Assembly (NCBI RefSeq): GCF_014203835.1
Contig: NZ_JACHJW010000001.1
Coordinates: 4,662,501-4,726,500 of the forward strand
DNA: 64,000 bases
Direction of reading: 5' to 3'
DNA from: Micromonospora polyrhachis
GTDB lineage: Bacteria; Actinomycetota; Actinomycetes; Mycobacteriales; Micromonosporaceae
The number at the start of each line of letters is the position of its first letter. Within the stretch, counting starts at the first letter, position 1. A program made the position numbers and the translations under genes. The notes beneath the pieces are model-generated. The model worked only from the letters and a program-made list of their open reading frames with translations. It did no database searches and was not told the DNA's origin. This document shows positions 13,064-50,443 of the stretch, piece after piece.

Positions 13064-13064
13064 G

Positions 13065-30290: not shown

Positions 30291-31865
30291 ATGATCTGCT
30301 CGGCATGCGGCACCGACCAAGACGAGGTCGACAGCGGTTACTGCATAAACCCGTCCTGCGGTGCTCGACTGGACCAGGCTGAGGTGCCCGGATCGATCGA
30401 CGAGCCCGAACAGTCCGGGAAGTCTGGAAAGCCCGAGCCTGCCAGACTGGACGACCAGGGAGGGCTCGAAAGCGTTGGACTGGCCGACCAGCGGGCGTCC
30501 GAGCCGGCCGAGCGGTCTGGACAAGACGCACACCCCTGGGATGCCGACCCCACACAACCGCAGGAGCAGCAACGACCGACGGCGCTGGTCGAAGAGCCCG
30601 AGGAACGGGCACCGCTCAACCGTGCCGAGGACTCAGGGTGGGGCACGGAAGAGGACTCGGGTTGGGGCGCGGAATCAGCGTGGGGTGAGGAATCCGAGCA
30701 GCTTGACCACCTCGATCGGCTTGACCGCCTCGAACCGCTTGATCGACTCGACCGACAGCCGGCCGGCGAGCCCGGCCAGGCGGACCAGCCCGAAGATGGA
30801 GTGCCGGTTCTACCCGGCGGGCCAGCCGGGCGCGACACGACGGCCCCCCTGCCCGACCAAGACGACACTGCGGACGTGGTGGCGGCGTACGGCAGCAGCG
30901 CACCGCTGCCGTACGCCCCGCGCGCATCAGGGGCGCACCGGGCCGAAGCGGAACCTCCGTCACCGCGCCGGCGGACCGCAGTGATCGCTGTCTGCGGGAC
31001 GCTGGTGCTGTCACTCGCGGCCGTCATCGCCATCTCGCAGGTGGTGAGCAAGCCAGACGCCGATCAGTTAGCCGGTTCAGACCAGATCATCCAGCCGGTC
31101 TCCGGATCGGACGGCACTACCGCCTCCGCCGACAGCGACCCGTCACCTTCCGGGAGTGCGTCGGCGACGCCCACCTCGCCGAGTACCGGCGAGTCGACGT
31201 CGGGAAGGCCATCCGCTGCCGGCAGCACATCGTCCCGCCCCAATAACGCGGTGCGGTTCGTCGTCAACGGCAACACGAAGCGAGAGGCGAACTGCCCGCA
31301 GGGAGTCACCTGGTCGACAGATCGCACGCATGGCCCGGCCGCATCGTTCGACCACAAAGGACGAAACTGCCTTACCTCCGGCCCGATGGTCGACACCACG
31401 GCAGACTTCACCGTATCGGCCTGGGTGAAGCTCAGTGCGCGCCCGAGCGACCTGTCGATGACGGCGGTCTCCCAGGACGGCAACAAGCAGAGCGGTTTCT
31501 ACCTCCAATACAGCGGTGTGCACCGTAGCTGGGCCTTCAACCGGATGAGCGCCGACGTGATGAACCCCGACGGGAACACTACGGCGACCTCCTCTGCGCC
31601 GGTGACGCTTGAGTGGACCCACCTGACCGGCACCTTCCATGCGGGCACCGGGACGATCCAGGTGTACGTCAACGGCGCTCCCGGCACGGCCACCACCCAA
31701 CACGCGAGGTGGCGAGCCACGGGGCCGCTGGTGATCGGGCGGGCGATGTGGAACGGCGAGCGGGGCAACTTCGTCCACGGTCAGGTCGCCGACGTGCGCG
31801 TCTGGAGCCGCACCCTGACCGCACAGGAAGTGTCCGGCCTGCCATGGACCCCTCCGGCGGGCTGA
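30291..31865 (+). CDS. Membrane protein with zinc ribbon inside and LamG domain outside
   Basis: This protein of about 524 residues has four parts. Residues 1-24 form a zinc-ribbon-like motif (ICSACGTDQ and CINPSCGA). A long acidic, disordered stretch follows to about residue 225, with repeats such as WGTEEDSGWGAES and HLDRLDRLEPLDRL. One membrane helix lies at about 230-252 (VIAVCGTLVLSLAAVIAISQ). A Ser/Thr-rich linker and a C-terminal concanavalin/LamG domain (DFTVSAWVKL, GTIQVYVNG, ADVRVWSRTLTAQEV) are predicted outside. ATG 30291 has GGAAGG upstream. Codon 260 is a rare TTA. It heads the coupled operon. Confidence 0.82.
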   Translation: MICSACGTDQDEVDSGYCINPSCGARLDQAEVPGSIDEPEQSGKSGKPEPARLDDQGGLESVGLADQRASEPAERSGQDAHPWDADPTQPQEQQRPTALVEEPEERAPLNRAEDSGWGTEEDSGWGAESAWGEESEQLDHLDRLDRLEPLDRLDRQPAGEPGQADQPEDGVPVLPGGPAGRDTTAPLPDQDDTADVVAAYGSSAPLPYAPRASGAHRAEAEPPSPRRRTAVIAVCGTLVLSLAAVIAISQVVSKPDADQLAGSDQIIQPVSGSDGTTASADSDPSPSGSASATPTSPSTGESTSGRPSAAGSTSSRPNNAVRFVVNGNTKREANCPQGVTWSTDRTHGPAASFDHKGRNCLTSGPMVDTTADFTVSAWVKLSARPSDLSMTAVSQDGNKQSGFYLQYSGVHRSWAFNRMSADVMNPDGNTTATSSAPVTLEWTHLTGTFHAGTGTIQVYVNGAPGTATTQHARWRATGPLVIGRAMWNGERGNFVHGQVADVRVWSRTLTAQEVSGLPWTPPAG

Positions 31866-31872
31866 GGTGACG

Positions 31873-32421
31873 ATGCAACCGTGGCCACGGCTGCTCCTGC
31901 CGGTCGGGCTCTACCAGGGCGCGTTTCCAGACATCGAGGACGACGGTGCGGGCGAACGGCACGAGGTACGCGTCGCCGACCACATGCTGGAGCTGAACGG
32001 AACGCAGTTCGCCTGCTGGCGGGCCCCGGACGGGACGGCGGGCACCGCTGAACTGCCGGAACTGCGCGAACGCGGCCTGGTGATCGACGTCGCGCCGGAG
32101 GAGGACGCGGCCGTCGTCTTCGCCCACGGCTGGCGGATCACGCCCCTGCTGTTGGGTCTCGGCCACAGCCGGCTCGTCCCGGACCACTTCGGCATCGGGC
32201 TACCCGGGCTCGAGCGTGTCACGGTGACCCCCCTGACGTACGAGGTGTGGGTGCGCTCGGCGGTGTCCCCGTCGCTCTGGGCCGCCTGCGCCTCGCTGAC
32301 CGACTTCGGCGTGCTCGCCATGATCGATGTAACCGATCCGGCGGCCGTGCTGCGGACGGTGCTGCTGGAGTTGCCCGGGCTGCTGGCCGCCAGCGCCGCC
32401 GCGCTGGAGCCGGCGTGGTGA
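31873..32421 (+). CDS. Unknown LPVG-family protein, paralog 1
   Basis: This protein of about 182 residues belongs to no family I recognise. It has four features shared with the genes at 32418, 33664 and 34278. These are LLLPVGLYQG at the N-terminus, a helix-turn segment ending ELRERGLVIDV, GWRITPLLLGLG followed by FGIGLPG, and YEVWVRSAVSPSLWAAC near the end. The GLV...D turn looks like a winged helix, which is only an impression. It has no signal peptide. ATG 31873 has GAGG 5 bases upstream; a GTG at 31867 is also possible. It starts 7 bases after the LamG stop. Confidence 0.72.
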   Translation: MQPWPRLLLPVGLYQGAFPDIEDDGAGERHEVRVADHMLELNGTQFACWRAPDGTAGTAELPELRERGLVIDVAPEEDAAVVFAHGWRITPLLLGLGHSRLVPDHFGIGLPGLERVTVTPLTYEVWVRSAVSPSLWAACASLTDFGVLAMIDVTDPAAVLRTVLLELPGLLAASAAALEPAW

Positions 32422-33053
32422 CGCCCGCCGCCGACGGCTCGCTGCTGCTGCCGGTCGGGCACTACGTCGCCGGTCAGGGCCAGGAGCACTGGGTGCGGAT
32501 CGGTGCCCGGACCACCCGGATCCGCGACGACGAGACGGCCAACGTCTGGTGGCTGGCTCACGGACTCACCGACCAGGCGACACCGTGGACGGCCCAGGCG
32601 GTGCGGGAGCACGCGGGCCTACCCGCCGACCGGTTCGCCGAGGCGATGGCCGAGCTGCGGGCCGCCGGTCTGCTGTGCGAGGTCGACCCGGCTGACGACG
32701 TGGCCGCCGAACGATTCGCCCGCCGGCACCGGCTGCATCCGTTGCAGCCCGGACTGGGTGCCCATCCGCAGCTGCCCGGCTGGTACGCGATCGGGCTGCC
32801 GGACCTGCCGGCGGCGGTGGTGGTGCCCCCGTTCGCCTTCGAGGTGTGGCAGTGGGCCCCGGCGTTGGACAGCCTGTGGCACGCCTGCGAGGCGGTTGCC
32901 GTCCTGGAGGACGAGGCCGCCGACCCGGACGACCCGGCTGCGGCCGACGACGCCGAGCCACTGTCCGTGCTGACCGACCTGCTGTACTGTCTACACCCGC
33001 TGCTGGCCGGGCATGCGGCCTACCTGGACGAGCGGATAGGAGATCCGGTGTGA
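32418..33053 (+). CDS. Unknown LPVG-family protein, paralog 2
   Basis: This protein of about 211 residues starts with a GTG that overlaps the previous stop (GTGA). Shared features: SLLLPVGHYVAG, LRAAGLLCEVD, HRLHPLQPGLG, YAIGLPDL, FEVWQWAPALDSLWHAC. It carries an extra acidic insert (DEAADPDDPAAADDAEP) before the C-terminal helix PLLAGHAAYLDERI, which recurs in paralogs 3 and 4. Its place in a strictly coupled series suggests fixed stoichiometry with its neighbours. Function unknown. Confidence 0.72.
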   Translation: MTPAADGSLLLPVGHYVAGQGQEHWVRIGARTTRIRDDETANVWWLAHGLTDQATPWTAQAVREHAGLPADRFAEAMAELRAAGLLCEVDPADDVAAERFARRHRLHPLQPGLGAHPQLPGWYAIGLPDLPAAVVVPPFAFEVWQWAPALDSLWHACEAVAVLEDEAADPDDPAAADDAEPLSVLTDLLYCLHPLLAGHAAYLDERIGDPV

Positions 33054-33667
33054 GCGGCCTGCCTGGAACCAGCCCGCCCTGGCCGACAGCCCGCTCGGCG
33101 TGGGAGTGCCAGGCGTTCCTGACGCTGACCCCCTGTCCGGGCTGCGCCGGGCCCGGGCTGCGGCCGAGGGAGATCGCCACGTTGACCGGGGACGCCGGCA
33201 AACGGTGGGAGTACCACGCCATCTGTGCCCGATGCGGACGCTCCGAGACGTTCACCTTCGCGCTCGCCGCAGAGCCCGCGCCGGCCTATCCGGAGTTCGG
33301 CGGCGCGACCCCGTCCCAACTGCTCGACGCCGGGCAGTTCCTCGTCCTGGCCGAGGTGGTGGCCGACACGGTGGCCGCCGACCCGTACGAGATCGACCTG
33401 CCGGGTCCGGACGCGGTGGGCACCATCGCGCAGGAGCTGGCCCGGGCGCGTGACGACATCGGGGTCGCCGTCGCGGCGGCGGCCGAGTGCCTGAAGTTCG
33501 TGCCGGCCGGCGCTACCGCAGTGCCCCGCTCGGCGCTGTGGAGCCCGGCGGGACTGGCCCGCTTCGACGCTGATCCGGAGGCGTTCGAGCGCCGGCACCT
33601 GCTCTCCACGCTGGGCGCGTTCCGCGAGGTGCAGTGGGAGTATTCGCGGGTGGGAGGCGAGGCGTGA
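33050..33667 (+). CDS. Double-CxxC zinc-ribbon protein inside the paralog array
   Basis: This protein of about 205 residues starts with a GTG overlapping the previous stop by 4 bases. Residues 20-70 hold two CxxC pairs (TPCPGCAGPG and AICARCGRSE) about 30 residues apart, so a zinc ribbon is likely. A helical domain follows (LDAGQFLVLAEVVADTVAAD, ELARARDDIGVAVAAAAECL, ERRHLLSTLGAFREVQWEYS). It is not a member of the LPVG family that surrounds it. Zinc ribbons bind nucleic acid or protein; I cannot say which applies here. Confidence 0.75.
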   Translation: MSGLPGTSPPWPTARSAWECQAFLTLTPCPGCAGPGLRPREIATLTGDAGKRWEYHAICARCGRSETFTFALAAEPAPAYPEFGGATPSQLLDAGQFLVLAEVVADTVAADPYEIDLPGPDAVGTIAQELARARDDIGVAVAAAAECLKFVPAGATAVPRSALWSPAGLARFDADPEAFERRHLLSTLGAFREVQWEYSRVGGEA

Positions 33668-34281
33668 CGCAGACGGACGCGTTGGTCTTACCAGTCGGAC
33701 AGTTCGGCAGCGCCACCGGCCCACTGAACGACCCGGCCACCCGATTCGAGGTCCGGGCCGGCGACCGTACGGTGACCCTGCACCCCGACCGGTTCGCGAT
33801 CTGGTTGTCCGCGCACGCGATGCCCGGCGCGCCCCGTTGGACCGAGCGGGCGCTCACCGAGTCGCTTGTCGCCGGGGGCATGCCCGCCGCCCCGGGCGAC
33901 CTGGATGCGCTCTACGCCGACAGCCTGCTGGTACAGGTCGACCCGGATCGGGCGGTGTCGTTCGCCGCCGGGCACCGGCTGGTGCCGCTGCTGCTCGGGC
34001 TGGGGGAGAGCAGCGACCAGCCGGGCGGGTACGCGCTGGGCCTGCTGGACCAGCCCCTGGTCACGGTCGCGGGGCCGATGTTCCTGCTGTGGGCCTGGTC
34101 CCCGGTGGAGCGTGATCTCTGGTCGTCCTGCCAGCGGCTCGCCGACGACATCGGCACCGGCCCGGACACCGCCGACGCCCCGGCCCTGACCGACCCGGAG
34201 GCGGTGCTCGCCGGGGTACTGGAGGGGCTGCACGGGCTGCTCAGCTGCGGCGCCGCCTACCTGGACCGGGTGGCGTCGTGA
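33664..34281 (+). CDS. Unknown LPVG-family protein, paralog 3
   Basis: This protein of about 205 residues is coupled by GTGA to the zinc-ribbon gene. Shared features: ALVLPVGQFG, FAIWLSAHAMPG, SLLVQVDPD, GHRLVPLLLGLG, YALGLLDQP, FLLWAWSPVERDLWSSC, GLLSCGAAYLDRV. Codon 9, in the family-defining LPVG motif, is the rare Leu codon TTA, where paralogs 1, 2 and 4 use CTG. No signal peptide or membrane segment. Function unknown. Confidence 0.72.
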   Translation: MTQTDALVLPVGQFGSATGPLNDPATRFEVRAGDRTVTLHPDRFAIWLSAHAMPGAPRWTERALTESLVAGGMPAAPGDLDALYADSLLVQVDPDRAVSFAAGHRLVPLLLGLGESSDQPGGYALGLLDQPLVTVAGPMFLLWAWSPVERDLWSSCQRLADDIGTGPDTADAPALTDPEAVLAGVLEGLHGLLSCGAAYLDRVAS

Positions 34282-34841
34282 CGGCCGTCATCCTGCCGCT
34301 GGGGCACTACCTCGGCGAATATCCGGACGGCGGCGACGGGCTGGAGCCGGGACACCTGCTCCGGGTCGGTGAGCACACCCCGACCCTGGCCGGTCCGACG
34401 CAACTGTCCTGCTGGGCGTTGGCGCACGAACGGCCGGAGTCGACCTTCGACGTCACCGTGGCCGACGTCCTCGGCACCGAGGGCCGAGAGGTCGTCACCA
34501 CCCTGCTGCGTGCGGGGCTGTTGCTGCGGGTGACGGACGACGAGACGGAACGCCGGGCCTTCGCCCGCAGCCACCGGTTACGTCCCCTGCTGACCGCGCT
34601 TGGTCGGCTGGCCGGCGACCCCGAGCGCTACGCGATCGGCTTCGCCGGCCAGGTCACCGCGGTCATCGACCCGCAGACGCATGACCTGTGGTGGTGGTCC
34701 GGTCCGTCGGGGAACCTGTGGGAACTGTGCGTACGGGTCGGTGCCATGCATACCCGCCGGCCCGAGGCGCTCCTGGACCACTTCCTGGCGCACGCGCACG
34801 ACCTGCTGGCTGGCGGGGCCGCCTACCTGGACGTGGCGTAG
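34278..34841 (+). CDS. Unknown LPVG-family protein, paralog 4
   Basis: This 187-residue protein is the last gene of the series, again starting with a GTG that overlaps the previous stop. Shared features: VILPLGHYLGEYPDG, LSCWALAHE, LRAGLLLRVTDDE, SHRLRPLLTALG, YAIGFAGQ, DLWWWSGPSGNLWELC, LLAGGAAYLDVA. Codon 101 is TTA. About 230 bases without a gene separate it from the convergent end of the giant gene; they contain short inverted repeats but no clear terminator. Confidence 0.72.
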   Translation: MTAVILPLGHYLGEYPDGGDGLEPGHLLRVGEHTPTLAGPTQLSCWALAHERPESTFDVTVADVLGTEGREVVTTLLRAGLLLRVTDDETERRAFARSHRLRPLLTALGRLAGDPERYAIGFAGQVTAVIDPQTHDLWWWSGPSGNLWELCVRVGAMHTRRPEALLDHFLAHAHDLLAGGAAYLDVA

Positions 34842-35071: not shown

Positions 35072-38000
35072 CTAGGTGGGGTCCGTCGTGGCGGGTGGCC
35101 CGCCGCGCAGGCCGTCCGCGATTGGTGACGACCGGGCCGGGCCGCGCGGCGGCGGTGCCGCAGGGCCCGCGTCCGGGCGGTCCGGACCGCCCGACGGCGG
35201 GGTGGGATCGTCGGGACCGGGACCACCGGGATCGGGATCATCCCGGTCCGGGCCCTGGGGATCGAGGGCGTCCCGACCAATATCCTGCACACCCGGCGGC
35301 AGCCGGACACCGCTCTCCTGCAACCAGGACAGGAGCACGGTGAACGTGTCCGCCAGTCGCGCCGGGTCGAGCATGGTCTGCGGCGCGATCAGCAACCGGC
35401 GGACCGGATCCCCGGGCGACCCCGGCCGGAGCTGCGCGTCCAGGCCGGCGGGAAGCGGCGTCACCTCGAACCTCACCAGTTCGTTGACCAGCCCTTCGAC
35501 GATTCTCCCGGGGACGGTGAACCGCAGTGTGTTCGAGTCCTGGAACTCGACCATATGCAGTGGCCCGATGCGCTCCATCTGGCCACTCTCGGCCATCTGC
35601 TGCAGTGCGGTCGTCACCCTGTGTCGCATCGTGTGATCGGCGAGACTCTCCACCAGCGCGTCATGGACTTTCCCGGGGCGTACGTTTTCCAGGGTGACGG
35701 CGCTTATCGTGCGCAACCTGCCCAACTGTTCGTCGCTCAGCCCGTAGCGGCGCTTCAGGAAATCTGCGTCGGCCACCCAGCGTTCTTCGCTGCCCGGTTG
35801 GCTGTCGAGTAGGCCCAGTTCGGCGAAGCGGCGCACCAGGTCGGCCTCCAGCATGTCCGGTTCGATAGCGGCCGGCACCGGAGCGTTCCGGTCGGCGAGC
35901 CGTGCGGCTCGCTCCAGGTCCTCAAGCCGCGCGCGGACTCGCTTCATCGCCGTCCGGTCGGCCGTGTTCAGCCGGCCCGGCTCGGGCCGGTTGGGGCCCG
36001 GGCGGAGCACCGATGGCAGGTTACGCAACAGGTGGCTACGTAGGCCGGCGTCGATGTTTCGCGCGTCGCGACCCACCTGGGCCACCCGGTCGCGCCGGCT
36101 GGGTGTGTCGTCGCGGGAGTCGACCACCGGAGCCGGTGTGATCTCGGCGGCGGCGGTCTTCACCGTCTCGCCCAACTCCATCGCCATCTGCGCCATATCC
36201 ACCAGGGAGTCCGGCCGGGCGGCCATGTCCATATGCAGCGCCCGCTGGGATTGGGCCCGTTTGTGCGCCGACCCCCACACCCGCATGGGCGTCTCCCCGA
36301 TCGCATTCGCCCCGGAGATCGTCAGCGAGCCCTTGAGCATAGCTATCAGCAGTGCGGGCGAGGCACCGAACAGCACCAGCACCGTCCCGCCGGCCAGGGT
36401 GAGGGCCAGCCTCGCCAGGGTCGCAGGACCGTGCTTGGAAAAGAGCTGCGACCACCAGTAGATATCGTTCGGCCGCCCGGCGATGCTGTCCGCCATGCGC
36501 TGCCGGGCCGCGTCCCCGAACCCACCCTTGAGTCGGTTCGCCAGCCCGCCCATGGCCGGGTCGAAGAGTCTACGCTTGATTCGGTCGCGCAGCCCGTTGA
36601 TCTGGCGTTGTGCAGCCGGCCGTTGGGGAAGGTCGTTGCCCCACACCATCCGTTCGATATGGTCGATGTCACGCAGCGCGTCATCAATCGCGCGCCGTGC
36701 GTCCCATGCCTCCACCGCCTGCCGGTCAGCCACCTCATCGACCTTCACCTGGCTCCAGCCTGCACCGTAGAAAGCCTGGCCCACAATGGTGACAACCCCA
36801 TTGACGACGGAGAATTTGAGCGCGAGTGCCTCCTCGAGCGGTGGCTTGTTCCTCATGGCGTTAAGGGCGAGCTGTGTCAGGACCGAGTTCACACCGCCCG
36901 GCACCTGCTGCACCCCGACCCGACCCATGTTGTCGCTCAGCCGCGGAGCGCCCGACGCATAACCCCGCCCGGCCATGGTGTAAGTCACTGCCCTGCCGTC
37001 CAACCAGGCAACCGGCACGGCGCCGGCACGCCGGATGGGCGTGATCAGTTGCCGGCGATACTCCATGTCCCTCAACTTGTGCTCGACCTCGCGGGCCATC
37101 GTGCTTTGTGCCTCGGTCAGGTCGGCGCGCAGCCGCCGCAGCAACGTCAGCAGCCGCGCCCGGTCCTGCGGGTCGAGTGTCCCGCCCTCATTACGCAGCT
37201 TGCGTACCTTCTCGTACAGTTTGCCGAGCGGGTAGGTCAACAGTCCGGCGGCGCTGTTGCGTCGGGCGTCGGGCGACAACGACACCTCGTGTTTTTCCTT
37301 GTCGGCAGCCTCGCGCTCTGGTTTGTCCTTGACGTAGTCCGCCTCGGCCTGGCCGAATCCCGTTCCGCCGACCTCGCCACCGAGGACGTACGCGGAAAGG
37401 GCAAGTTGCGCCCACCGACCCTGCACCGGTGAGCTGTTGAAATCGCCCGGGTCTTTCGCCCACAACGGGAGTGCGCTGGCAATACCGCCGGCCGCCGCTC
37501 CCCCCAGCCGTTTCGCCCAGTTCTCGCCACGATCGGGATGCGTCCGCCACTGGTAGAGGCTCGGCGCGACGTCAGGGTCCGGTGGTTTGAACCGGACCGG
37601 TTCGCTTTGGCTGGCCACGACGCCGGCGGCCTTGTTGTCGGCGAGAGCCTGACTCATGTCCCGGACGTAGGCGCGGTTCCTGCTCATCTCGGTCTGTTCC
37701 GGACCCCGATTCGCATGTTCGTTCGTAAGGTCCGCGTACGCCCAGGCCGCGCTGGCGCTGAGGATCCGCCGGAACTGGTGGAAACCAAGTCCGACTGTAG
37801 ACGGGTCGGGTGGCCCGATCAGGGAACGAAGCGGCTTGGCGAACAGCCGGTACAGGGGTATGTGCTGCGTGGGCCGCGCGTCAACGTTCAGCCTGTTCAA
37901 CAGAAACCGGGCCAGCCCAGCCCAGGCCAGCCCAGACGTCGGGTCGATGGTGCCGGTCGCCGGCAGCCATAGCCCGAGCAGCAACTGCGCCGCGAACTCC

Positions 38001-41000
38001 CTCTTCAGGTTCCAATTCGCCAACGTGGTCATTCGCTTGTTGTCGGCCGTGGGTACCCCGACCGCCCGGAACCGCAGCAGCAATTCGGCCGCCATGTGGT
38101 TCATCAGGGTCCGCTCCAGCGGAGTGGCAAACTCGCGGAAACCGAACAGGGTGTTCAACTGTGCCTCGGTCCGGGCGACCGCCCTGGACGCCGCATCCGC
38201 CTGCGGCTCGCCCTGCAACAGCGCGAGCTCGGCCAGCGTGCCGGCGACGTCGATGGCGATCGCCTGGTCGCTGGCGTCCGAGCGGACGACGATCGTCAAC
38301 TTCCCGTCGGCGTCAGTCGCCAATCGCACGGCGGCACCGGGCACCGCCGGCTCGTCAAGGACCTGCACCGGGATGTCGACTGTCCTGCCCAGCTGACCCT
38401 CGGTGGCAGGCAGCTGTACGGTCAGCACCGACTCGCCACTGTCCTGGCGTAGCCGGACGCCGTCGATCGCGGCGTCCGACCGGTTCACGTACCGGCGCGC
38501 CCGGGAGTCGAGCGCAGCCAGCACCTTCTTCTTGTCGGCGGCGCTCCGGGTATCCATCATCCGCAACGCGATCAGCCGATGGTGTCGTCCACCGGTCAGT
38601 ATGCGGCGCAGTTTCCCGCGTCGCCGGGCACTGTCGGTCTGGTCGGTGAGCAGACCCATCTCGGCCAGGCGTCGCACGACCCTGCGCGACGGATTGTCCG
38701 AACGCTCGTGCGCCGTCTGCGCCAGCCGACGCCACCGGGATTTGTCGGCGGCGGAGAGACGTAGTGGGCCGAGTCGCAACCACCCGGGCCTCGTTTCGGG
38801 GTTGGTCGAGTCACCGAGCCACAAACCCCGCCGGGCGGACAGGACCTGCTCGCCGCTGTCGGCTATCACATCCTTCAGCAGTGCGACGTCCAGCCCGGAT
38901 TCGCCAATCAGCGCAGCCGAGAGTTCCACCACGACGGTGGGATACGTCTCCGACTCTGCTACGTCCGCATCGGACGGCACCTGCACGTTGTAGAGGTTGC
39001 CCTCCGGCAACAGTGCGAACCGGAGTTCGACGTCGAAGGTTTTCCGGTCCGGATCCTGTGCCCACTCCTGGGGCGTGAACCGGATTGTCCGCGTACCGGG
39101 CAACCGCTCGGCCCGGGCCCGGGCCGAGTCGGCGTTCAACTCCTCGACCGCCTGGTCCAGCATCCGGTCCAGGGCGGCCTCGTCCATTCCGGCGAGGCTG
39201 GCCGCGAGGTCCGCTTCGTTGATTGCGTGGTTGACGGTGCTGGTCAAGGCCGTTCGGGCCTCAGTGAGCGCCTTTCTGGTCTCCCAGACGTCAGCCACCG
39301 CCTTCGTGCGTGCCTCCTCGTCAGGGCCAGTCATCGCCGCCAGCAGGGCGTCCACCGCAGCCAGAGCCTGGGTTTCGCGCTGTTGCACCTGCTCAAGCAG
39401 CGGCAGCATTCGCGACCATGCGCGTTGACCGAGCCGAGTGACGGTTCTGCGGTGGGCGTCGGTAGTGGCGTTGCGTGCGCTGTCCGCCTCCATCCAGGTT
39501 TCGAGCATGGCACCGCGCTCACGGGACAACCGTGTCCGGAGGTCGTTGGCCGCCTTCACCGCGTCGGCGAGAGCCGGCATTATCTCCGTCGCCGGCACAG
39601 TGGTGTCGGCGACGGCCAATTGGTCGGCAATTCGCTGGCGTTGCTGGACGATCGCCTGCACCCGCTGGTCGATCTGGTGGGAAACAATGTCAAGCGCCGC
39701 TTGGGCCTGCGCCGCGTTGAGATCCGTCGCCTCGGCCACCACGCTGCGAGCGTCGTAGAGGGTGTCCTCCAGCCACTTGATGGTTGTGTCGGCGGCGGTC
39801 AACTGGTCCATTACAGGTTTCAGTGACTCGTGCAGATCGGCCAGGTCCTTCGCGGCCTCGTCCATCGCCGTGACCAGCTCGTCACGTTCGGCGGCGGTCA
39901 GGTCGTCGTTCGTACCGGCCGCCCACAGCTTGGCCCGGGCGACCCGCAACCGTTCGGCCGCTTCCGCGATCCGTCCGGCGAGTGGGCTGCCCTCGATACC
40001 GAGGGCGGTGAACGTTGCCCGGATGCGCCCGGTCTTGCCCAGCGACTCGCCCACGTCCTGGGCGTTGCGCAATCGCTGCGCCAGGTGGTTGTGGGCCCCG
40101 ATGTCATCGATGAGCTTGGCGACCACCGCTGGCACGCTGGTGTCGAACACGCTGACCGCAGCGAGCGCGGCCGAGTCGATGGCCGGAGCGCCCAGGGCGG
40201 CGATCAGCGCATGGACGCTGGCGTCGAGCGCAGCGACGGCAGCCTCGTCGATGTTCGGGGCACGCAACGCGGCCGCGAGCCGGTTCACCTCGGGCAGCAG
40301 GTCCTGTCTCAGCATCGCGACATATGCCCGGGCGACTGATGCGACGGCGGTTGCCTCCAGGCTGCCCGGCTGCACGCCTTCCGGAAGGATGGTGCCGTCC
40401 GCGAGGGCCTCGAAGTACGCGATCGTGGCGTAGACCGCGTCCACGGTAGCCTCGGCCACCCGGACCTGCGGTGACTGGGGATCACGGTCACGCGGATCCT
40501 CGTCGCCGCCCCAGCCGCGCGGGCCCACCGGACCACCCGGCCCGCCGCGACCGCCTGATCCCGGGTCGTCCGGATTCTGGGCATCGCCCGGTGGGTCGGC
40601 TGGCGGAGGCGGTGACGCCGGTGGCACGTTACCGAACGGTCGCCTAATGTCCTGCACGCCTGGCGGCAGCTGGCCGCCGTGCTCCTGCACCTGGGACAGG
40701 ATCACGGAGAACAAGTCGGCGAGCCGTGCCGGGTCCGTCATGACCTGGGGCGAGATCAGCAACCGACGGGTGGACTCCCCGGGCAACGCCGGCTGTAGTT
40801 GCCCGTCCACGCCGGGTGGCAATGGTGCCACCTCGAACCCTATCCGTGTGGCGTGCCCGCCGACGATGTGCCCCTCGACGGTGAACCGCAGCGTGCTCTG
40901 GTCCTGGAGCTCGACCATCCGGATCGGCCCGTCGAGCTCCATTCGGCCGCTCTCGGCCATCTGCTGCAGGGCTGCCGTCACCGCCTGTTGCTCAGTGAGA

Positions 41001-44000
41001 CCCTCCAGCAACGCGTCACGGATCTCTCCAGGTGGCAGGGTGGCGGGGTCGGTGCCGCGAAGCTCGCTCAGGATGGACGCCTGCTCCAGGCTCAGCCCGT
41101 AGCGCCGCTGCAGGAAGCCCTCGGCGGCCTTCCAGCGGATGTCGCTACCCGGTTGGATGTTGAGCAGGCCCAACCTGGCGAGTTCACGCACCAACTCGGC
41201 CTTCAGCAACTCCGGGTCGAGTGCGCCCGTCAACAGCTCCGATTCGGGCGTCAACGGCGGCGCGTCCCGGGTCGCGAGCGCTGCGGACCGGGCGAGGTCG
41301 CCAAGCAGCTCGTGGATCCGCCTCATCGCCATCCGGTCAGCCGGGTTGAGCCGGCCCGGCGTCGACCGGTTGGGGCCCGGGCGCAGCACCGGTGGACGGT
41401 CGCGCTGCAGGTAGTCACGCAGGCCGGTGTTGATGTAGAACAGGTCGCGGCCTACCTGCGCCAACCGGGCGCGCCGGCTGGGCGTGTTGTCACTGGAAGC
41501 GACCGGGGCCGGCCGGATCTTTGCAGCGGCGTCCCTGACCTGCTCACCCAGCTGCACTGCCAGCAGCGCCATGTCCTCCAGGGTGTCCGGCCGGGCAGCC
41601 ATGTCGGTACGCATCGCCTTCTGCGCCTGAGCCCGCTTGTGCGCCGGCCCCCACACGCGCATGGGCGTCTCCCCGAGCGAAGCCGCCGCAACGACCTTCA
41701 GCGATCCCTTGAGCATGCCGAGCAGCAGCGCAGGCGCGGCACCGAGGGTGATCAGTACGGTCCCGAACACCAGGGCGAAACCCAGCCGCCCGAGGAGCGG
41801 AGGCCCGTGTTTGTAGAAGAGCTGCGACCACCAGTAGACCTCGTTCGGCCGTCCGGCGGCCCGGTCCGCGAGGCGTAGCCGGACCGCGTCCCCGAACCCG
41901 CCCATGATCAGGTTGGCCAGCCGCCGCCGCGCGGCCGGCTGCTGGGGAGCAGCTTCGTCCCGCAGCATCCGTTCGATCGCGGCGATGTCACGCAACGTGT
42001 CATCGATCGCGCGCCGCGCGTCCCACGCGTCCACCGCCTGCCGGTCGGCGACCTCCTCGACCTTCAACCGGCTCCAGCCAATGCCGTACAAGATGCCATG
42101 GCCCAGGACGCTGATCAGCGCGTTGCTGACGGTGAACTGGAGCGGAAGGCCGGCCGGAACGTCGGGGGTAGAGTTCGCCGGCGTGGTGGCTGGATCCGTA
42201 CGACCTGGGCCCTTCATCTTGCTCATGAGCATCTGGAGCAGGACCGAATTCAGACCGGTCGCTCCCTGCTGCCCCGCGACCCGTCCCGCGTTGCTGCTCA
42301 GCCGTGGCGCTCCCGACGCATAACCCCGGCCGGCCATGGTGTACGTCATCGGCACACCGTCCACGTTGACGACCGGTGCGCTGCCGGCGCGACGGAAGAG
42401 CGTGATCCGGCGGCGGCGGTACGCCATGTCCGTCAGCTTGTGCCTGACCTCGTTGGCCATCTGCTGCTGCGCCTCGGTTAGGTCGGCGCGCAGTCGCAGC
42501 AGCAACTCCAGCAGCCGCGTCCGCTCCCGTGGGTCGAGGGTGCCGTTCTCGCTGAGCAGCCGCAGCACTGTCTCGCGCAGTTCCGTGACCGGGTAGGTCA
42601 ACATGCCGGCGGCGCGATTGCGGCGCTCGTCGGGCGAGAGCGAGACCTCGTGCTTTTCCTTGTTGGCAGCCTCCCGCTCCGGTTTGTCCTTGATGTAGTC
42701 CACCTCGGCCTGGGCGAAACCCGAGCTGGCCACTTCGCTGCCGAGGACGTGCATGGAAAGGGCCAGTTGGGCCCACCGACCCTGCACCGCCGTACCCCGG
42801 AACTCGTCCGGATTGCCCTTCCACAGCGGAATCAGGCTGGCGAGACCGCCAGCCGTCGCGCCCGGCAGCCGCTTTTCCCAGTTCTCGGCCCGATTGGGAT
42901 GCGTGGGCCACCGGTAGACGCTCGGTGCCGTTTCGGGCCCGGGTAGTTTGAACCGGGCCGGCTCGCTTTGAGCGGCGACCGTGGCAGCGGCCTTCTTGTC
43001 GGACAGACCCTGAACCGGATCCCGTAGGAAGCTGCGCAGCGCGGTCATCTGGGTCTGTTGGTCGCTCCGTCCGGCATGCGTGTTCGTGTCCTCCGCGTAC
43101 CACCAGCTTGAGAAAGCGGTGAACAGTCGTCGGTACAGGTGGAACCCGACTCCAGCCGTGGCCCGGTCGGGTGGCCCGATCAGAAGGCGATACGAAAGGC
43201 CGACCCGCCGCAGTGAGTCCACCCGGCGTGCGCCCAGGTCCAGCGCTGTCAGCCGGTCGACGTCGGCACTCGGCACCCCTACCGCCGGCATCCGGGCCAG
43301 CAACTCGTCCGCCATCTGGTTGATCACGGTCCGCTCCAGCAGACTGGAACGCATGCGGAACTCGGCCAGCACCTTCAACTGCGCCTCAGCCCGGGCGACG
43401 GCACGCCGTTCGGTGAGAGACGTCGACGGTGTTTCGGCAGGGGGTGTGTCCGCCTTCGGCTTTTCGTGCAGCAGCGCGAGCTCGGCCAACGTGCCGGCGG
43501 TGTCGACGGCGATCGCCTGGTCGCTGGCGTTCGAGCGGACGACCACCGTCATATTCCCGTCCGGGTCGGTCTCCAGTCGTACGGCGGCCCCGGGCACCGC
43601 TGGTTCGTCGACGACCCGCACCGCGATGTTGATCCGCTCGCCCTGCTGCCCCTCGGCAGGGGGCAGTTGCACGGTCAGTACCGCGTCGTCACCGTCCCGG
43701 AGTAGCTCGCTGCCGGTCACCGCGACGTTCCTCGGCACGGACTCGCGGGTGGGGCGGTCGGCGGCCTGTTCGTCCTGTAAGGGGCGGGTCGCGTACCGGC
43801 GTGCCGAGGAGTCGAGTGCGGCCAGTGCCGCTTCCCGGTCGGCGGTGCTGCGGGTGTCCATCATCCGCAGCGCGATCAGCTGGTGTTCTGGATCCTCGGT
43901 CAGCCTGCCCCGCAGTGATCGACGCCGCCGGTCACTGTCGGTCTGGTCGGTGAGCAGACCCATTCCAGCCAGGTGCCGTACCACCCGGACGGACGGGTCA

Positions 44001-47000
44001 GCCTGCGTGTCGGTCGACGTCTCGGCCGGCGTTCCGGTCAGCGTTTCGGCCGCAGCTCGTACCAACCGACGCCAGCGGGACTCGTCACCGGCGGAACGGC
44101 GCCGCGGCCAACGCCGCAGCCATCCGGGTCTGGTCTCGGGGTTGGTCGCCTCGCCGAGCCACCGGCCCCGCTCGGCGAGAAGGACCTTTTCGCCACTTTC
44201 CGCGAGCGCATCGCCCAGTAGTGCGACGCCAAGTTCGGCTTCGCCGATCAGCGCAGCTGAGACCTCCAGCACGACGAGCGGATACGTCGTTGACGCCCTA
44301 ACGTCGTCATCGGACGGCAACCGAATCCGATACGGCGTGCCCTCCGGCAACGGTACGAACCGAATCTCGACATCGAAGGTGTTCCGATACGGGTCGTGCG
44401 CCCAGGCCGGGGGCGTGAACCGAATTCTCCGCCGTCCGGACGGCGTCTCTGACACGGGGGTCTGCCGTGCTACGAGTTTCTTCCCCCGGTTGGGGCCGGT
44501 ATCCCCTGGGGGCGGTTCCGGCTTTTGGCGGTCGGGGTCGGGGTCGGGGTCGGGCTCAGAGTCGGGGTCGGGGGCAGGGGTGGGGCCTTCTACCCATTCG
44601 AGGGTTGTCTCCGTTTCGGGTACCCGCTCGGCGCTGGCCCACTCGACACCCAGGTTCCTGGCAGCCTCGTCCAGCATGCTGTCCAGGGCGGCTTGGTCCA
44701 TCGCGGCGACGCGGGCCGCGACATCCGCCTCCTCGACCGCCCGGTCCATAGCTACCGTCAGGGCGTTCCGGCCCTCCGCGAGCGCTCTCCTGGTGTCCGT
44801 GACGGCGGCCAACGCCTTCGAGCGCGCCTCCTTGTCCGGACCGGCCATCGCCGTCAGCAGGGCCTCCACCGCCGTTTGCGCCTGAGCCCGGAGTTGGTCG
44901 ACCTGCTTCACCAGCGGCGACAGCCTGGCCTGAGCGCGCTCACCAATCAGATGGGCGATGCTGCCGCTGGCCGCGGTGGTGGTGTTGCGCGCCTCGATCA
45001 GCTCGATGTGGGCTTCGGACAGGGCGGCAACCTCACCCGCCAACTGCTTGCGGACGTTGCCCGCCGACTGCACCACGTCGTTGAGATCCGGCAGGATCTC
45101 CCGTGCCGGCTCGGTGGTGTCGGCGGTGGCCAACCGGTCGATGACCCGCTGACGATGCAGGGTGATTGCCTGGACCTGGGCGTCGATCTGACTTGCCATC
45201 GTGTAGAGCGCTGTCTCGGCCTGCGCCTCCATGTCTGTGCTCAGCTCGACCAGATGCGTGCTGGCCTGATCAAGGATGAGCCGTAGGGTTTCGACCATCT
45301 GGTCGGCGGCGGCGAAACCGTCCAGCACCGGTGCCAGCGACCTCTGCAGGTTGGCGAGGTCCGTCGCGGCGTCTTTCAGCGCGATGACCAGTGCCCTACG
45401 TTCGGCCGAGGGCAGGTCGCTGTTCGCTCCGGCCGCCCACAGTCTGGCTCGTGCCGCCCGCAGCCGCTCGGTTGCTTCCGCGATCCGTCCGGCGAGCGGC
45501 CCCCTCTCGGCACCGATGGTGGTGAACGTCGCGCGGATTCGCGCGGTGATGTCCAGCAATCCGCGGATCTCATGAGCGGCGTTTGACCACTCCGTCAGGA
45601 TGGTGCGAACCGTCTTTCCGTCCCGGCCGGGGAGATCGGCGATCGCCGCGCGCACCCGGGACTCGATGTCAGCGACCGCGGAGGCGTCGACGACCGGGGC
45701 GCTTACCGCCGCCCTGAGTCGGTCCACCTCGGGCAACAGGTCCCGCCGCAGTTTTCCGACGATCCTTGCGGCGGCGCGACGGGTTACGTCTTCGGAGCGA
45801 ATGGTGCCGGCCGCGACGGCTTCGAAGTATGCGATTGTGGCGTAGAACGCGTCCAGGGTCGCCTCGGCCATCTTGACTTCCAACGGCCGGGTATCGCGGT
45901 CACGCGGATCCTCGTCACCGCCCCAGCCCTGCGTACCGGTGGGGCCATTCGGCCCGCCGCGGCCGCCCGATCCGGGCCGGTCCTCCTGGAGTTGGGTACC
46001 GTCCGGCGTGTCGGGTGCCGGTGGCGCAACCGGCATCGCCGGGGTCTGCTCGGCAGGCTCCTGCTCGGTCCGGTCCCGTTCGGCCGTCGCCGTGTCGACA
46101 GGCGCAGCACCGACAGGTGTAGTACCGACGGGCGCGGTGCCGGCAGGTGCGGTGTCGGCTGGCGGCGTCTGCGTAGGTGTCGGCTCGGCGCTGTCGGCAG
46201 GGCCCTGCGAACTGTCGACCGGTGCCGCCGGGGTGGTCTCGACCGGTGGCGGCTGCTCGGCCGGTGGCTGCCCGCTCCGACTGTTGGCTGGCAGACGCAC
46301 CGACGACCGCGTCCCGCCGGGCGTGATGCTCCCTACCGGGAACAGCACGTTGCCCTGGGCGATGCCGACCCGGCTGGGGCCGCTGTCACCCGACGTCGCT
46401 TCCGGCCGGGCACCGGCGTCGCCAGGAGTGGCGGCTGTCGGTTCCTGCGTGGGCGCGGGCTGGGCGGACGCCTCCGGTTCGGATGCCGGCTGACCGGGGA
46501 TCGCCGGTGACGTCTGTGCGTCGCCGGTGGTCGGATTGTCGCCAGGCCGTCCCACGGGATCGGGTTCCCCGGCCCGGGTGCCCGGAGCATCGCCGGTCTC
46601 CACGGGAGACGCGGGTGGCGCGTCATGCACCGCTCCCGGCTCGCCGGGGGTGGGGGTGCCGGCCTGTGATGCGGGGCCGGTAGGAGTGTCCGTCCCGGTG
46701 TCGGCCGGTGCCGGCGGAGCAGCAGGGTCACCTTGGCTGGTACTCGGAGCGGCAGGGTCACCTTGGCTGGTACTCGGAGCGGCAGGATCACCAGGGCCCG
46801 TACTCGGACCGCCGCTCTCGGCGGGCCCTTGAGTGCCGGGGCCGCCAACCGGCGCGGTCGGTTCCACTGGCGCAGCCGGATCCCCCGGATCAGCCGGTGC
46901 GGTGGGGCCGGCGGGTGCAGCAGGACCAGTCGGCGCGGTAGGGCCGGTGGGTGCGGCAGGCCCGGCCGGTGCGGCGGGACCAGTTGGTGCGGCGGGAGCA

Positions 47001-48131: not shown

Positions 48132-48443
48132 CTATACGCGGATGTTCAGCGGAGCGGCGGCAGACCGGTCCGTTTCGAGGAGCCCGTTGACCGCGTTCGC
48201 AGCGGTGGCGGTGTCAGTCGCGGTGGTGTCGAAGAAGGCCGCCATGTCACCGAGTGAATCGTTGGCCGCGGTGATGTTCTGCTGCAGCTGTGCCCCGACT
48301 TCGCCGCCGCCGATCACGACGGGGACGGCCAGTATGCGCTCGACTTGCGCCCGCACGGCTGCCTGGTGCCGGGCGGCCCTGGCCTGTAGGTCCGCCATCG
48401 CCTCCCGGGCACCCGGCCCCAGCCGACTCTCCACGTTGCTCAC
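48132..48443 (-). CDS. Small helical protein, EspC/ESX-target-like
   Basis: This 103-residue, almost entirely helical protein is Ala-rich and has no signal peptide (EAMADLQARAARHQAAVRAQ, LQQNITAANDSLGDMAAFFD, TATAANAVNGLLETD). Its size, helix-turn-helix layout and place between a YbaB-like gene and a WXG protein resemble EspC-type type VII targets. The similarity is structural impression rather than motif. Its ATG overlaps the YbaB stop (ATGA), and it ends 7 bases before the giant gene starts, so the three are one coupled unit. Confidence 0.65.
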   Translation of the reverse strand: MSNVESRLGPGAREAMADLQARAARHQAAVRAQVERILAVPVVIGGGEVGAQLQQNITAANDSLGDMAAFFDTTATDTATAANAVNGLLETDRSAAAPLNIRV

Positions 48444-48844
48444 TCTTCCGTCAACGGCAGGCGCTGGCGCATCCGCTCCATCACCTGGGTGAGATCACCT
48501 GATGCGTACGAGTCAAAGGAATCTCCATCGACGTAGGGCTGACAGATTTCCTTGACCCGCTCCCTGGCCTCTGCCGCCGCCACCTCGATGGTGTCCAGGA
48601 TGGTACGCGCGAGCGCTGCGGCGTCGGCGTCGTGGTAGATGCGCGGATCGAGGTGTAGGTCGCGAGGCTTGCCGTCACTACCGACCGTTGCCCGGACCAA
48701 CCCGTCGCGGGACACCGCGGTCACCGACACCTGCCCGATCCTCTCCTGAAGACCGTCCATCGAGTCGGTGATGCGCTGCAGTTGGCCGGTCAGGTCACGT
48801 GCCCGCGCACGCATCGCCGCCAGCATTTCGTCATCCACGCGCAT
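48440..48844 (-). CDS. YbaB/EbfC-family protein (EspL-like)
   Basis: This protein of about 134 residues has the YbaB fold: an N-terminal helix (MLAAMRARARDLTGQLQRIT), a beta sheet with VSVTAVSRDGLVRATVGSDG and PRDLHLDP, and a C-terminal helix ALARTILDTIEVAAAEA. In mycobacterial ESX-1 loci the YbaB-like EspL accompanies secreted Esp proteins, and this gene heads the unit containing the giant protein. A TACAGT box 6 bases before the ATG and the lack of a ribosome site suggest a leaderless mRNA. Confidence 0.82.
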   Translation of the reverse strand: MRVDDEMLAAMRARARDLTGQLQRITDSMDGLQERIGQVSVTAVSRDGLVRATVGSDGKPRDLHLDPRIYHDADAAALARTILDTIEVAAAEARERVKEICQPYVDGDSFDSYASGDLTQVMERMRQRLPLTEE

Positions 48845-48961
48845 GGCATGACTGTAGCCATAGGACACTTGGCGCACTAGATTCGGTTCCGATACGCGGG
48901 ACACGCATCGCCGGGCCACAGCCGCCCCGAGGGCGCGAAGCGGGGTGGAGAGGAGCAACCG

Positions 48962-50125
48962 GTGGTACGGCGACTCGCGGCGGTAGTCCTGATGGCGGCA
49001 TCCGTACTGGTGCTCTCCCCGGCTCCAGCCCACGCCGCCTCCTGCGGCTACCAGAGTAAGCCGGTGGCCGCACCGAAGATCTCCGTGACCTCGTGGGCCC
49101 AGCGGCTGCTCGACCTGCCCAGGGCGCACCAGCTCGCCACCGGTTCGGGCGTACGCGTGGCGGTCGTCGATTCCGGTGTAGACAGAAGACATCCGCAGCT
49201 GGCGAAGGCCGTTCAGACCGGCTGGGATGTCACCACAGGCGGATCAGGTGGCACATTGGACTGTCAGCGCCAGGGGCATGGCACCGCGATCGCCAGCCTC
49301 ATCGGTGCCCGACCCGCCAGCGACGCCTCCCTCGTCGGCGTGGCGCCGCAGGCCACCCTCCTGCCGATCCGGGTCGCTGACAACGACCCTGCCACCGATG
49401 CTCCGGTCTCCGCGGCCGCGCTCGCGACGGCGGTCACCGAATCCGAGCGGTTGGGTGCCGATGTCATCCACATCTCCTACTCGCTCGCGGTCGACGACGC
49501 GCGCCTGCGCGCCGCGGTTGCCAGGGCGATCAAGAGTGGAGTCGTGGTGGTGGCCGCCGCCGGGGACGGACTACCCGGTCCGAGTTACCCCGCCGCCTAC
49601 GACGGCGTCGTCGGGGTAGGCGCACTGGCCGCGTCGGGCGACGTCCTGGACGGCTCGGCACGTGGTCCGCACGTCGACCTTGTCGCACCCGGCGAGCAAC
49701 TGGTGGCGGCAGCGCGGGTCGGGGGGCACACCGTCGTCGGCGGTACGCCGGCGGCCGCCGCCGTGGTCAGTGGTGCTGCGGCGCTGCTGCGCGGATCGCA
49801 TCCGCAGTGGACGAACGAGGAGGTGGTGCGTCGGCTGCTCGCCACAGCCGACGGCACCGCCGGTGGTACCGGCAATGCCGCGTTCGGGCAGGGCAGCGTC
49901 AACCCGTACCGCGCGTTGGTCGAACCGGCCGCGACCGTCGGTGCCGTGCCCACCTGGGCCCCTGCGCCCGCGACGTTGGCGCAGGCCCCCACCCGCCCAG
50001 GCTGGCCCGGTTCGTGGCGGGTCGCTCTGGCGTGCGCAGCACTGTTCGGCCTCGGGGCCGCCGGGCTGTTGACCGGGCGGGCGGTGGCGCGCACCCATCG
50101 GCAGCGCCACCGCCCGTCCGGCTGA
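48962..50125 (+). CDS. mycP: Mycosin-like subtilase with replaced catalytic Ser (pseudo-protease)
   Basis: This 387-residue protein has a signal peptide (1 to about 26), the mycosin N-terminal Cys (ASCGYQ), a subtilase domain and a C-terminal anchor (WRVALACAALFGLGAAGLL). The catalytic Asp70 (VVDSGVD) and His106 (QGHGTAIAS) are present. The Ser motif GTS reads G-T-P (Pro263, codon CCG at 49748-49750) in VVGGTPAAAAVVSGAAA. The oxyanion position reads AAAGDG where Asn is usual, though mycosins may vary here. Mycosins also stabilise the ESX complex without cleaving anything, so a structural role is plausible. GAGGAG precedes the GTG. It diverges from the YbaB gene. Confidence 0.9.
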   Translation: MVRRLAAVVLMAASVLVLSPAPAHAASCGYQSKPVAAPKISVTSWAQRLLDLPRAHQLATGSGVRVAVVDSGVDRRHPQLAKAVQTGWDVTTGGSGGTLDCQRQGHGTAIASLIGARPASDASLVGVAPQATLLPIRVADNDPATDAPVSAAALATAVTESERLGADVIHISYSLAVDDARLRAAVARAIKSGVVVVAAAGDGLPGPSYPAAYDGVVGVGALAASGDVLDGSARGPHVDLVAPGEQLVAAARVGGHTVVGGTPAAAAVVSGAAALLRGSHPQWTNEEVVRRLLATADGTAGGTGNAAFGQGSVNPYRALVEPAATVGAVPTWAPAPATLAQAPTRPGWPGSWRVALACAALFGLGAAGLLTGRAVARTHRQRHRPSG

Positions 50126-50443
50126 TCAGGCGAGGTTGTTCCTGGAACCGGTACGGGAGATTGCCTCCAGGTTGCGCTCCTCGGCCTGCCTGAAACTGCG
50201 ACTCGCGGCGCCGATCGCACCGGCGAAGTTCACACCGATTTGGTTCAGTTGCTGCGCGCCGGTCTGCCACTGCTGTCGCAGCCCGGTGTAGGCGGCTTTG
50301 GACGCGCCGTCCCAGGTCTGGGAACGCTCGTCCATAAAGCTCTCCAGCACGCGGAGACGGCTCTGCATTTCTTCCAACTGTGCCTGGAAGGTGGCACCGG
50401 CGCGGGCGATGTCCGCGATCGGGACGATCATGGGCTGGGACAT
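50126..50443 (-). CDS. WXG100 protein (EsxA/B-like)
   Basis: This 105-residue helical hairpin protein has the turn motif W-D-G in RSQTWDGASKAAYTGL. Long helices flank it (AGATFQAQLEEMQSRLRVLE and NQIGVNFAGAIGAASRSF). WXG100 proteins are secreted by type VII systems as dimers. I see no clear YxxxD/E export signal at its end, so its partner may carry it. Its stop shares the palindrome TGATCA with the mycosin stop on the other strand. It is co-directional with the second WXG100 gene, 31 bases away. Confidence 0.92.
   Translation of the reverse strand: MSQPMIVPIADIARAGATFQAQLEEMQSRLRVLESFMDERSQTWDGASKAAYTGLRQQWQTGAQQLNQIGVNFAGAIGAASRSFRQAEERNLEAISRTGSRNNLA

What the first reader, a model, noticed from the sequence alone, without database searches (positions are those of the whole stretch)
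30291..34841. Six-gene coupled operon with four members of an unnamed LPVG protein family
Four proteins of 180-210 residues share LLLPVGxY, an HRLxPLLLGLG block, YAIGLP and a final LWxxC. They are encoded by genes joined by 4-base GTGA overlaps, with an unrelated double-CxxC protein in the middle and a zinc-ribbon/TM/LamG protein in front. I know no family or system with this make-up. The strict coupling implies a fixed-ratio complex. The position beside an ESX locus and a giant WXG protein suggests a partner system such as chaperones, immunity proteins or cell-surface assembly. The similarity is read directly; the role is inference.
Basis: partly seen in the sequence, partly recalled or inferred. 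Interest (0 to 1): 0.85.

Follow-up and report, generated by a model that had tools for sequence, protein, structure and literature searches.

The report
Paired RRE-like partners of giant toxins
Next to the genes of a bacterial protein-export machine and one of its giant cargo proteins sits a fixed six-gene operon whose four related, unnamed proteins have a doubled peptide-binding-type fold, and they most likely bind and disarm (or escort) the giant effector, a use of this fold that I found nowhere described.

Summary
Genes B, C, E and F (31867-34841) encode four homologous proteins (31-37% identical) joined by four exact 4-base GTGA overlaps around a double-CxxC protein (D). Gene A in front is a zinc-ribbon/TM/LamG protein, one base apart. 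Neither the LPVG nor the CxxC family matches Pfam or NCBIfam. A confident model of E (pLDDT 89.5) is a tandem duplication; both halves resemble PqqD/RiPP recognition elements (RREs). All LPVG proteins are acidic (median pI 4.6), which argues against DNA binding. The family was found only in the window's order. It splits into a tandem clade and a solo clade. Tandem-clade loci carry an ESX locus plus a WXG100_2 giant (2,100-10,900 aa) in 12 of 16 cases. The whole six-gene order, with colinear orthologues, recurs in another genus. Sister giants hold deaminase, glutamine-deamidase and calpain domains. SUKH-1 immunity genes adjoin half of the tandem loci, and one LPVG is fused to SUKH-1. Best reading: a new immunity-type set of client-binding partners for giant T7SS effectors (0.45). 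Secretion adaptor/chaperone is the main rival (0.30). The solo clade lies away from T7SS, so the link applies only to the tandem clade.

The parts
30291..31865 (+). Gene A: N-terminal zinc ribbon (CSACG..CINPSC), long acidic linker, one TM segment, Laminin_G_3 exodomain
   Evidence: Pfam PF13385 E 5.7e-25; in G599 the positional counterpart keeps zinc ribbon and TM but has a different exodomain
31867..32421 (+). Gene B: LPVG protein 1 (184 aa, shortened middle of the N-half)
   Evidence: homology to C, E, F; positional counterpart L141:7952
32418..33053 (+). Gene C: LPVG protein 2 (211 aa)
   Evidence: orthologue L141:8562, support 100/92
33050..33667 (+). Gene D: double-CxxC zinc-ribbon-like protein with helical C-terminus, unnamed family (205 aa)
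   Evidence: recurs beside tandem LPVG genes; no Pfam/NCBIfam family; single-sequence model poor, pLDDT 48
33664..34281 (+). Gene E: LPVG protein 3 (205 aa), modelled
   Evidence: AlphaFold2 pLDDT 89.5, pTM 0.85, two beta4-alpha3-beta halves; RRE/PqqD-like; orthologue L141:9834, 100/99
34278..34841 (+). Gene F: LPVG protein 4 (187 aa)
   Evidence: orthologue L141:10430, 100/95
35072..48124 (-). Giant protein, 4350 aa, N-terminal WXG100_2, internal duplication of about 1,850 aa; its 3' end faces the operon
   Evidence: PF25547 E 7e-15; the two copies are 51% identical
48132..48443 (-). 103-aa protein in front of the giant gene; about 115-aa counterparts in sister loci
   Evidence: no Pfam match
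48440..48844 (-). YbaB/EbfC-like protein
   Evidence: PF02575 E 2.3e-14 on ORF 48440-49192; conserved position
49064..50125 (+). MycP-like subtilase
   Evidence: PF00082 E 1.1e-36
50126..50443 (-). WXG100 protein
   Evidence: PF06013 E 1.8e-10
50475..50837 (-). WXG100 protein
   Evidence: PF06013 E 2.6e-7
52833..54215 (-). EccB
   Evidence: PF05108 E 1e-71
54240..55658 (-). EccD
   Evidence: PF19053 E 4.7e-65, PF08817 E 1.4e-17
55676..59632 (+). EccC-type FtsK/SpoIIIE ATPase
   Evidence: PF01580, three stretches, E 6e-88

Best explanation
The LPVG proteins are cytosolic client-binding proteins made of two RRE-like (PqqD-like winged-helix) domains. They act as a set of paralogues, probably in pairs, on the giant WXG100_2 effector whose gene ends beside them. 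The role judged most likely is immunity: each LPVG (with the CxxC protein D and, in sister loci, a SUKH-1 protein) masks an enzymatic or membrane-active module of the giant until it is exported by the ESX machine, or neutralises the same effector arriving from kin cells. Shown: homology, fold class, acidic charge, fixed order, orthology, linkage to giant and ESX, toxin domains in sister giants, SUKH-1 linkage and fusion. Inferred: physical binding to the giant, neutralisation, any toxin activity of the window's own giant, and use of the RRE cleft.
For: Tandem-clade loci sit beside the 3' end of WXG100_2 giants near EccB/C/D, MycP, WXG100 and YbaB-like genes in 12 of 16 cases; 20 random 20-kb regions held no LPVG, CxxC, YbaB-like or EccB/EccD gene and one EccC homologue. 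Sister giants carry YwqJ-deaminase E 2.5e-24, Gln_amidase E 3.7e-50 and calpain E 1.2e-22 in the window genome's own second locus, and calpain in G592/G606. In G592:C13 an 855-aa YwqJ-deaminase/Gln_amidase protein with no ESX gene seen in the fetched flanks still has SUKH, two LPVG genes and CxxC; G606:C84 has the same arrangement with an 866-aa protein that shares the giants' C-terminal domain, its toxin domains not scanned. SUKH-1 lies within about 2 kb of LPVG in G000, G001, G033, G035, G592 (two loci) and G606 (two loci), in genomes with only 1-3 SUKH-1 matches for the first four. A SUKH-1-LPVG fusion exists at G594:C15 (SUKH-1 E 1.2e-10 in the same open frame), at a locus without a giant in the regions fetched. 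LPVG-LPVG fusions exist, like polyimmunity proteins (PMC3482391). LPVG count is twice the giant's module copies in window (2/4), G599 (2/4) and G031 (1/2). Acidic pI, none above 7 of 65.
Against: No toxin domain was recognised in the window's own giant and no SUKH-1 lies in the window operon. The operon is convergent with the giant here and in several sister loci, whereas immunity genes usually follow the toxin on the same strand. Homologous LPVGs accompany giants with different enzymes, including a GH10 domain that should need no immunity. Number and order are stable between genera, while polyimmunity loci are described as variable even between strains (PMC3482391). Solo-clade relatives overlap VirD4 or neighbour FtsK-like genes, with no toxin in sight.
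Confidence: 0.45

Rival explanations
1. The LPVG set is a dedicated secretion adaptor or chaperone: the RRE-like domains bind short segments of the giant, keep the very long chain soluble and hand it to the EccC motor, working as EspG does for PE/PPE proteins.
For: RRE-like fold is a peptide-binding fold (PMC12710340, PMC7470986). Fixed set and order conserved between genera with 1:1 colinear orthologues. Relatives occur beside other FtsK/HerA-type motors: VirD4 with 4-base overlap in L057, L064, L143, and FtsK-like ATPases in L045, L050, L051, L054, L146, L147. Two LPVG per giant module. Found with a GH10/LysM giant.
Against: SUKH-1 linkage and fusion point to immunity. LPVG genes persist beside a shorter deaminase/Gln-amidase protein with no ESX gene in the flanks fetched. 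No match to the EspG family (the genome search for EspG was not validated, its controls were silent).
Confidence: 0.3
2. The LPVG and CxxC proteins form a scaffold or assembly complex for surface display with gene A as membrane anchor.
For: A is first in both six-gene operons and has a TM and an exodomain that differs between genera.
Against: tblastn of A finds no relative in the other loci fetched, so most tandem loci seem to lack it; LPVG proteins show no obvious signal or TM segment in sequence or model.
Confidence: 0.08
3. LPVG proteins are winged-helix transcription regulators of the ESX locus.
For: The N-half profile also matches MarR and GntR winged helices over 27-29 columns.
Against: All members acidic, pI 4.1-6.2; four to six co-translated paralogues would be unusual for regulators; the best full-domain match is PqqD, 61 columns.
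Confidence: 0.06
4. They are true RREs that recruit a modifying enzyme to the giant or another ribosomal substrate (a RiPP-like pathway).
For: Fold resemblance to many RREs; two giants end in LPxExxLHxMxGG-like tails resembling a double-glycine leader.
Against: No RiPP-modifying enzyme recognised among the neighbours read; the window giant lacks that tail; alpha3/beta3 is not the most conserved part.
Confidence: 0.05

Closest known systems
PqqD / RiPP recognition elements (RRE)
   Same: beta-sheet followed by a three-helix winged-helix domain in both halves; the structural list is rich in RREs (PqqD 5sxy Z 7.6, TbiB1 5v1v Z 7.0, TbtB 6ec8 Z 7.0, McbB 6gri Z 6.4, PbtF 8t19 Z 5.4, TruD 4bs9 Z 5.1); N-half profile aligns with PqqD over 61 columns
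   Different: two domains in tandem, no Pfam PqqD hit, no RiPP enzymes seen nearby, tied to T7SS giants; Z values of 8 and below are suggestive only
Polymorphic-toxin immunity proteins and polyimmunity loci (SUKH and others; PMC3482391), EsaG/TipC/TsaI strings of T7SSb (PMC9484751)
   Same: tandem acidic paralogues at the 3' end of a WXG-type effector gene, SUKH-1 neighbours and fusion, fused double copies
   Different: fixed order conserved between genera, convergent orientation in several loci, recurrent CxxC partner, RRE-like fold, no known toxin in the window's giant
EspG chaperones of mycobacterial ESX systems
   Same: would play the same part if the adaptor rival is right
   Different: no sequence match; structural comparison not available here
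ESX-type T7SS loci of actinobacteria
   Same: EccB, EccC, EccD, MycP, WXG100 pair, YbaB-like gene
   Different: giant of 2,100-10,900 aa and LPVG/CxxC genes as recurrent extra parts

Membership tests
RRE (RiPP recognition element) | beta-beta-beta then alpha-alpha-alpha order of a winged helix (strict definition in PMC12710340) | tested here: met
   half 1: strands 7-39, helices 41-85; half 2: strands 104-136, helices 137-194, each with one extra strand before and after
RRE (RiPP recognition element) | structural similarity to solved RREs clearly above background | tested here: inconclusive
   many different RREs among the top rows on both halves, but Z at most 8 and Foldseek E at best 0.03
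RRE (RiPP recognition element) | sequence relation to PqqD/RRE profiles | tested here: inconclusive
   N-half prob 56, score 26 against reversed controls at most 11; MarR and GntR also match over a shorter stretch; C-half not significant; no Pfam hit
RRE (RiPP recognition element) | binds a leader or follower peptide in the alpha3-beta3 cleft | not testable with these tools
   needs binding assay; cleft not preferentially conserved across paralogues
RRE (RiPP recognition element) | located in a RiPP biosynthetic cluster | tested here: not met
   neighbours are ESX, giant, CxxC and SUKH genes; no RiPP enzymes recognised
Polymorphic-toxin immunity family | gene next to a toxin gene, at its 3' end | tested here: met
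   next to the 3' end of WXG100_2 giant genes in the tandem clade
Polymorphic-toxin immunity family | neighbouring protein carries a toxin domain | tested here: inconclusive
   met in sister loci; none recognised in the window giant
Polymorphic-toxin immunity family | association or fusion with known immunity domains | tested here: met
   SUKH-1 neighbours and SUKH-1-LPVG fusion in sister loci; none in the window operon itself
Polymorphic-toxin immunity family | neutralises the toxin | not testable with these tools
   needs experiment
EspG | match to PF14011 | tested here: not met
   no Pfam EspG match for any of 55 members; genome search also negative but without a ringing control
EspG | EspG fold | tested here: inconclusive
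   no EspG entry in the rows shown, which does not exclude it
ESX/T7SS locus (surroundings) | EccB, EccC, EccD, mycosin, WXG100 proteins | tested here: met

The most novel reading that the evidence does not exclude
A tandem RRE-like fold has been recruited from peptide recognition to protein secretion and conflict: sets of two to six paralogues, about two per giant module, bind giant multi-enzyme T7SS effectors by recognising linear segments, serving as combined immunity proteins and export adaptors, together with a recurrent zinc-ribbon partner.
Probability: 0.3. Interest if true: 0.8.

Novelty: new variant of a known kind. Interest (0 to 1): 0.6.

Why it matters
It gives one unnamed protein family a fold and two unnamed families a context, defines an ESX locus type built around effectors of 2,100 to 10,900 residues, and offers a direct test of how such giants are kept harmless and exported. 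It would also put an RRE-like domain outside natural-product biosynthesis; in the library searched, one unrelated genome paper holds both 'RiPP recognition element' and 'type VII secretion', and none holds 'PqqD-like' with it.

Tried and rejected
Pfam, NCBIfam and PADLOC gave no family for LPVG or CxxC. EspG genome search silent, but its controls were silent too. The search for related loci in genome contigs returned one locus only; viral contigs, plasmids and phages none. The n=400 phylum search scored only 8 candidates per genome, so its negatives are not used. First PqqD alignment had wrong strands and a faulty shuffle control; replaced. Single-sequence model of D too poor to interpret. LPVG profile against the giants: no LPVG-like domain inside them. 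The double-glycine-like tail turned out to be the end of an 85-aa domain shared by several giants, absent from the window giant. DNA-binding regulator: rejected mainly on charge. PDB search with the giant gave only collagen-like low-complexity matches. phmmer of the SUKH part of the fusion against the PDB found nothing; the Pfam profile did.
Full report
What is there. The six genes are as described, with two corrections: A and B are one base apart rather than overlapping, and LWxxC is not C-terminal. The four LPVG proteins are true homologues (31-37% identity, BLASTP E about 6e-13 to 3e-26). Neither they nor gene D match any Pfam or NCBIfam family. Gene A carries a LamG domain (PF13385).

Fold. 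From nine sequences (four window proteins, five from one related contig, L076) AlphaFold2 gives a confident model of E (pLDDT 89.5, pTM 0.85): two similar halves, each four strands, three helices and a closing strand. The halves are recognisable as a duplication by profile comparison (hhalign prob 84, single-comparison E 7e-6). Among 993 PDB chains aligned by VIA-align 2, PqqD and RREs of several RiPP classes are frequent in the upper rows for both halves (5sxy Z 7.6; 5v1v 7.0; 6ec8 7.0; 6gri 6.4; 8t19 5.4; 4bs9 5.1). These Z values are in the range where chance matches occur, and Foldseek itself gave nothing below E 0.03, so I call the fold RRE-like, not RRE. By sequence, the N-half matches PqqD over 61 columns (prob 56; reversed controls at most 0.4); MarR and GntR match over 27-29 columns only. 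That places it in the winged-helix superfamily with PqqD as best full-length match. The C-half is not significant. All 65 members examined are acidic (median pI 4.6), so DNA binding is unlikely.

Distribution. Matches occur in 17 of 60 relatives and 17 of 60 same-family genomes besides the window's own, and in none of about 54 genomes of other orders of the class. Organism names are mostly hidden; one contig (L076) is titled Actinomycetales bacterium isolate RSA1.

Two clades, two settings. In the tree of 89 members, solo, FtsK-linked and VirD4-linked members form one clade of 40 (97/93) apart from the tandem members. Tandem-clade loci number 16. Twelve have a giant plus ESX core genes (window, L036, L038, L044, L046, L047, L055, L056, L063, L137, L139, L141). 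L039 lies on a 13.6-kb contig. L138 and L140 have an 855- or 866-aa protein with the giants' C-terminal domain; Pfam, run on the L138 protein only, finds deaminase and Gln-amidase domains there. L142 has a SUKH-1-LPVG fusion and no giant in the regions fetched. The twelve span 9 genera in 3 families. In G592, G606 and G001 the N-terminus of the giant was not read in one piece, so WXG100_2 there is inferred from position. Random regions are a fair baseline: 20 regions of 20 kb gave no LPVG, CxxC, YbaB-like or EccB/EccD gene. Solo members often stand behind an 84-86-aa helical protein or overlap VirD4.

Synteny with the window. G599 (another genus of the family) has zinc-ribbon/TM protein - LPVG - LPVG - CxxC - LPVG - LPVG in the same order, then, after a 5.6-kb insertion of other genes, the giant, YbaB-like, MycP, two small proteins, EccB, EccD, EccC. 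Three of the four LPVGs pair one-to-one with the window's at support 100/92 or better; B pairs by position only. Identity is 46-55%, dN/dS below 1 with dS 0.6-1.0: an old set kept under purifying selection. The exodomain of gene A is LamG in the window and something else in G599.

The giants. Lengths: window 4350; second locus of the same genome 5719; G053 3712. By contig coordinates across overlapping open stretches: G035 about 7,824, G048 about 10,929, G038 3,751, G599 about 3,643, G031 about 2,130. Pfam finds YwqJ-deaminase, Gln_amidase and calpain in the window genome's second giant, calpain in G592/G606, GH10 and LysM in G035, but only WXG100_2 in the window's giant and in G053's. The window giant holds two copies of a module of about 1,850 aa (51% identical); G599 has two copies and G031 one, with four, four and two LPVG genes. 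Three cases are suggestive, not proof; the G599 giant was searched in two separate pieces.

Immunity signal. SUKH-1, a leading immunity domain of polymorphic toxins (PMC3482391), lies within about 2 kb of tandem LPVG genes in G000, G001, G033, G035, G592 (two loci) and G606 (two loci), although the first four genomes have only one to three SUKH-1 matches in all, and it is fused to an LPVG in G594. LPVG-LPVG fusions occur (L046, L056, L150). Strings of paralogous immunity genes are known beside T7SSb (PMC9484751). Against: stable number and order, convergent orientation in several loci, and no toxin recognised in the window giant.

Conclusion. What is shown is a protein family, found only in this order in the sample searched, with a doubled RRE-like fold, forming a conserved operon with an unnamed CxxC family beside giant ESX effectors. 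What is inferred is that the proteins bind the giant. I rank immunity (0.45) above adaptor/chaperone (0.30); the two may coincide. The solo clade's role is left open.

Noticed in passing
window 35072-48124 (-): The giant has an internal duplication of about 1,850 aa (51% identical) and hydrophobic segments, but no recognised catalytic domain; function unknown.
   Followed up: partly
L036/L077/L087 (same genome, C1:904000-952900): A second ESX locus of the same genome with a 5719-aa giant carrying WXG100_2, YwqJ-deaminase, Gln_amidase and calpain domains, plus SUKH/DUF6406, two LPVG and a CxxC gene.
   Followed up: yes
L081/L088/L046 (G048:C1:7470184-7502973): One open reading frame of about 10,929 codons running through three overlapping stretches beside EccB/C/D and four LPVG domains.
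   Followed up: partly
L036, L044, L038, L138, L140: A conserved C-terminal domain of about 85 aa (ending LGFELPDEPTLHEMLGG in one) is shared by several giants and by 855/866-aa proteins; a free-standing relative of about 109 aa lies in L080.
   Followed up: partly
L057, L064, L143: A VirD4-type coupling-protein gene overlaps an LPVG gene by 4 bases, followed by a Gly/Ala-rich protein: a conserved three-gene unit of unknown role (L074 has a VirD4-type gene beside its LPVG gene in another arrangement).
   Followed up: no
L037, L051, L145, L146, L147, L068, L071, L072: An 84-86 aa helical protein directly upstream of a solo LPVG gene; in part of these loci an FtsK-like ATPase of about 850 aa lies nearby.
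   Followed up: partly
window 61789-63459 (+): Beta-helix plus AAA ATPase plus AAA_lid_6 protein that recurs in sister ESX loci (L047, L086, L087, L088, L090, L151, L153); an EccA-like role would be a guess.
   Followed up: no
window 50894-52348 and 52363-52788 (-): Two unannotated genes between the WXG100 pair and EccB with no Pfam match; proteins of similar size and start lie at the same place in G599 (L155:11339-12802 and 12802-13257).
   Followed up: no
window 30291-31865 and L141 about 7006-7941: Gene A keeps zinc ribbon and TM but differs in its exodomain between genera (LamG versus an unrecognised domain).
   Followed up: partly
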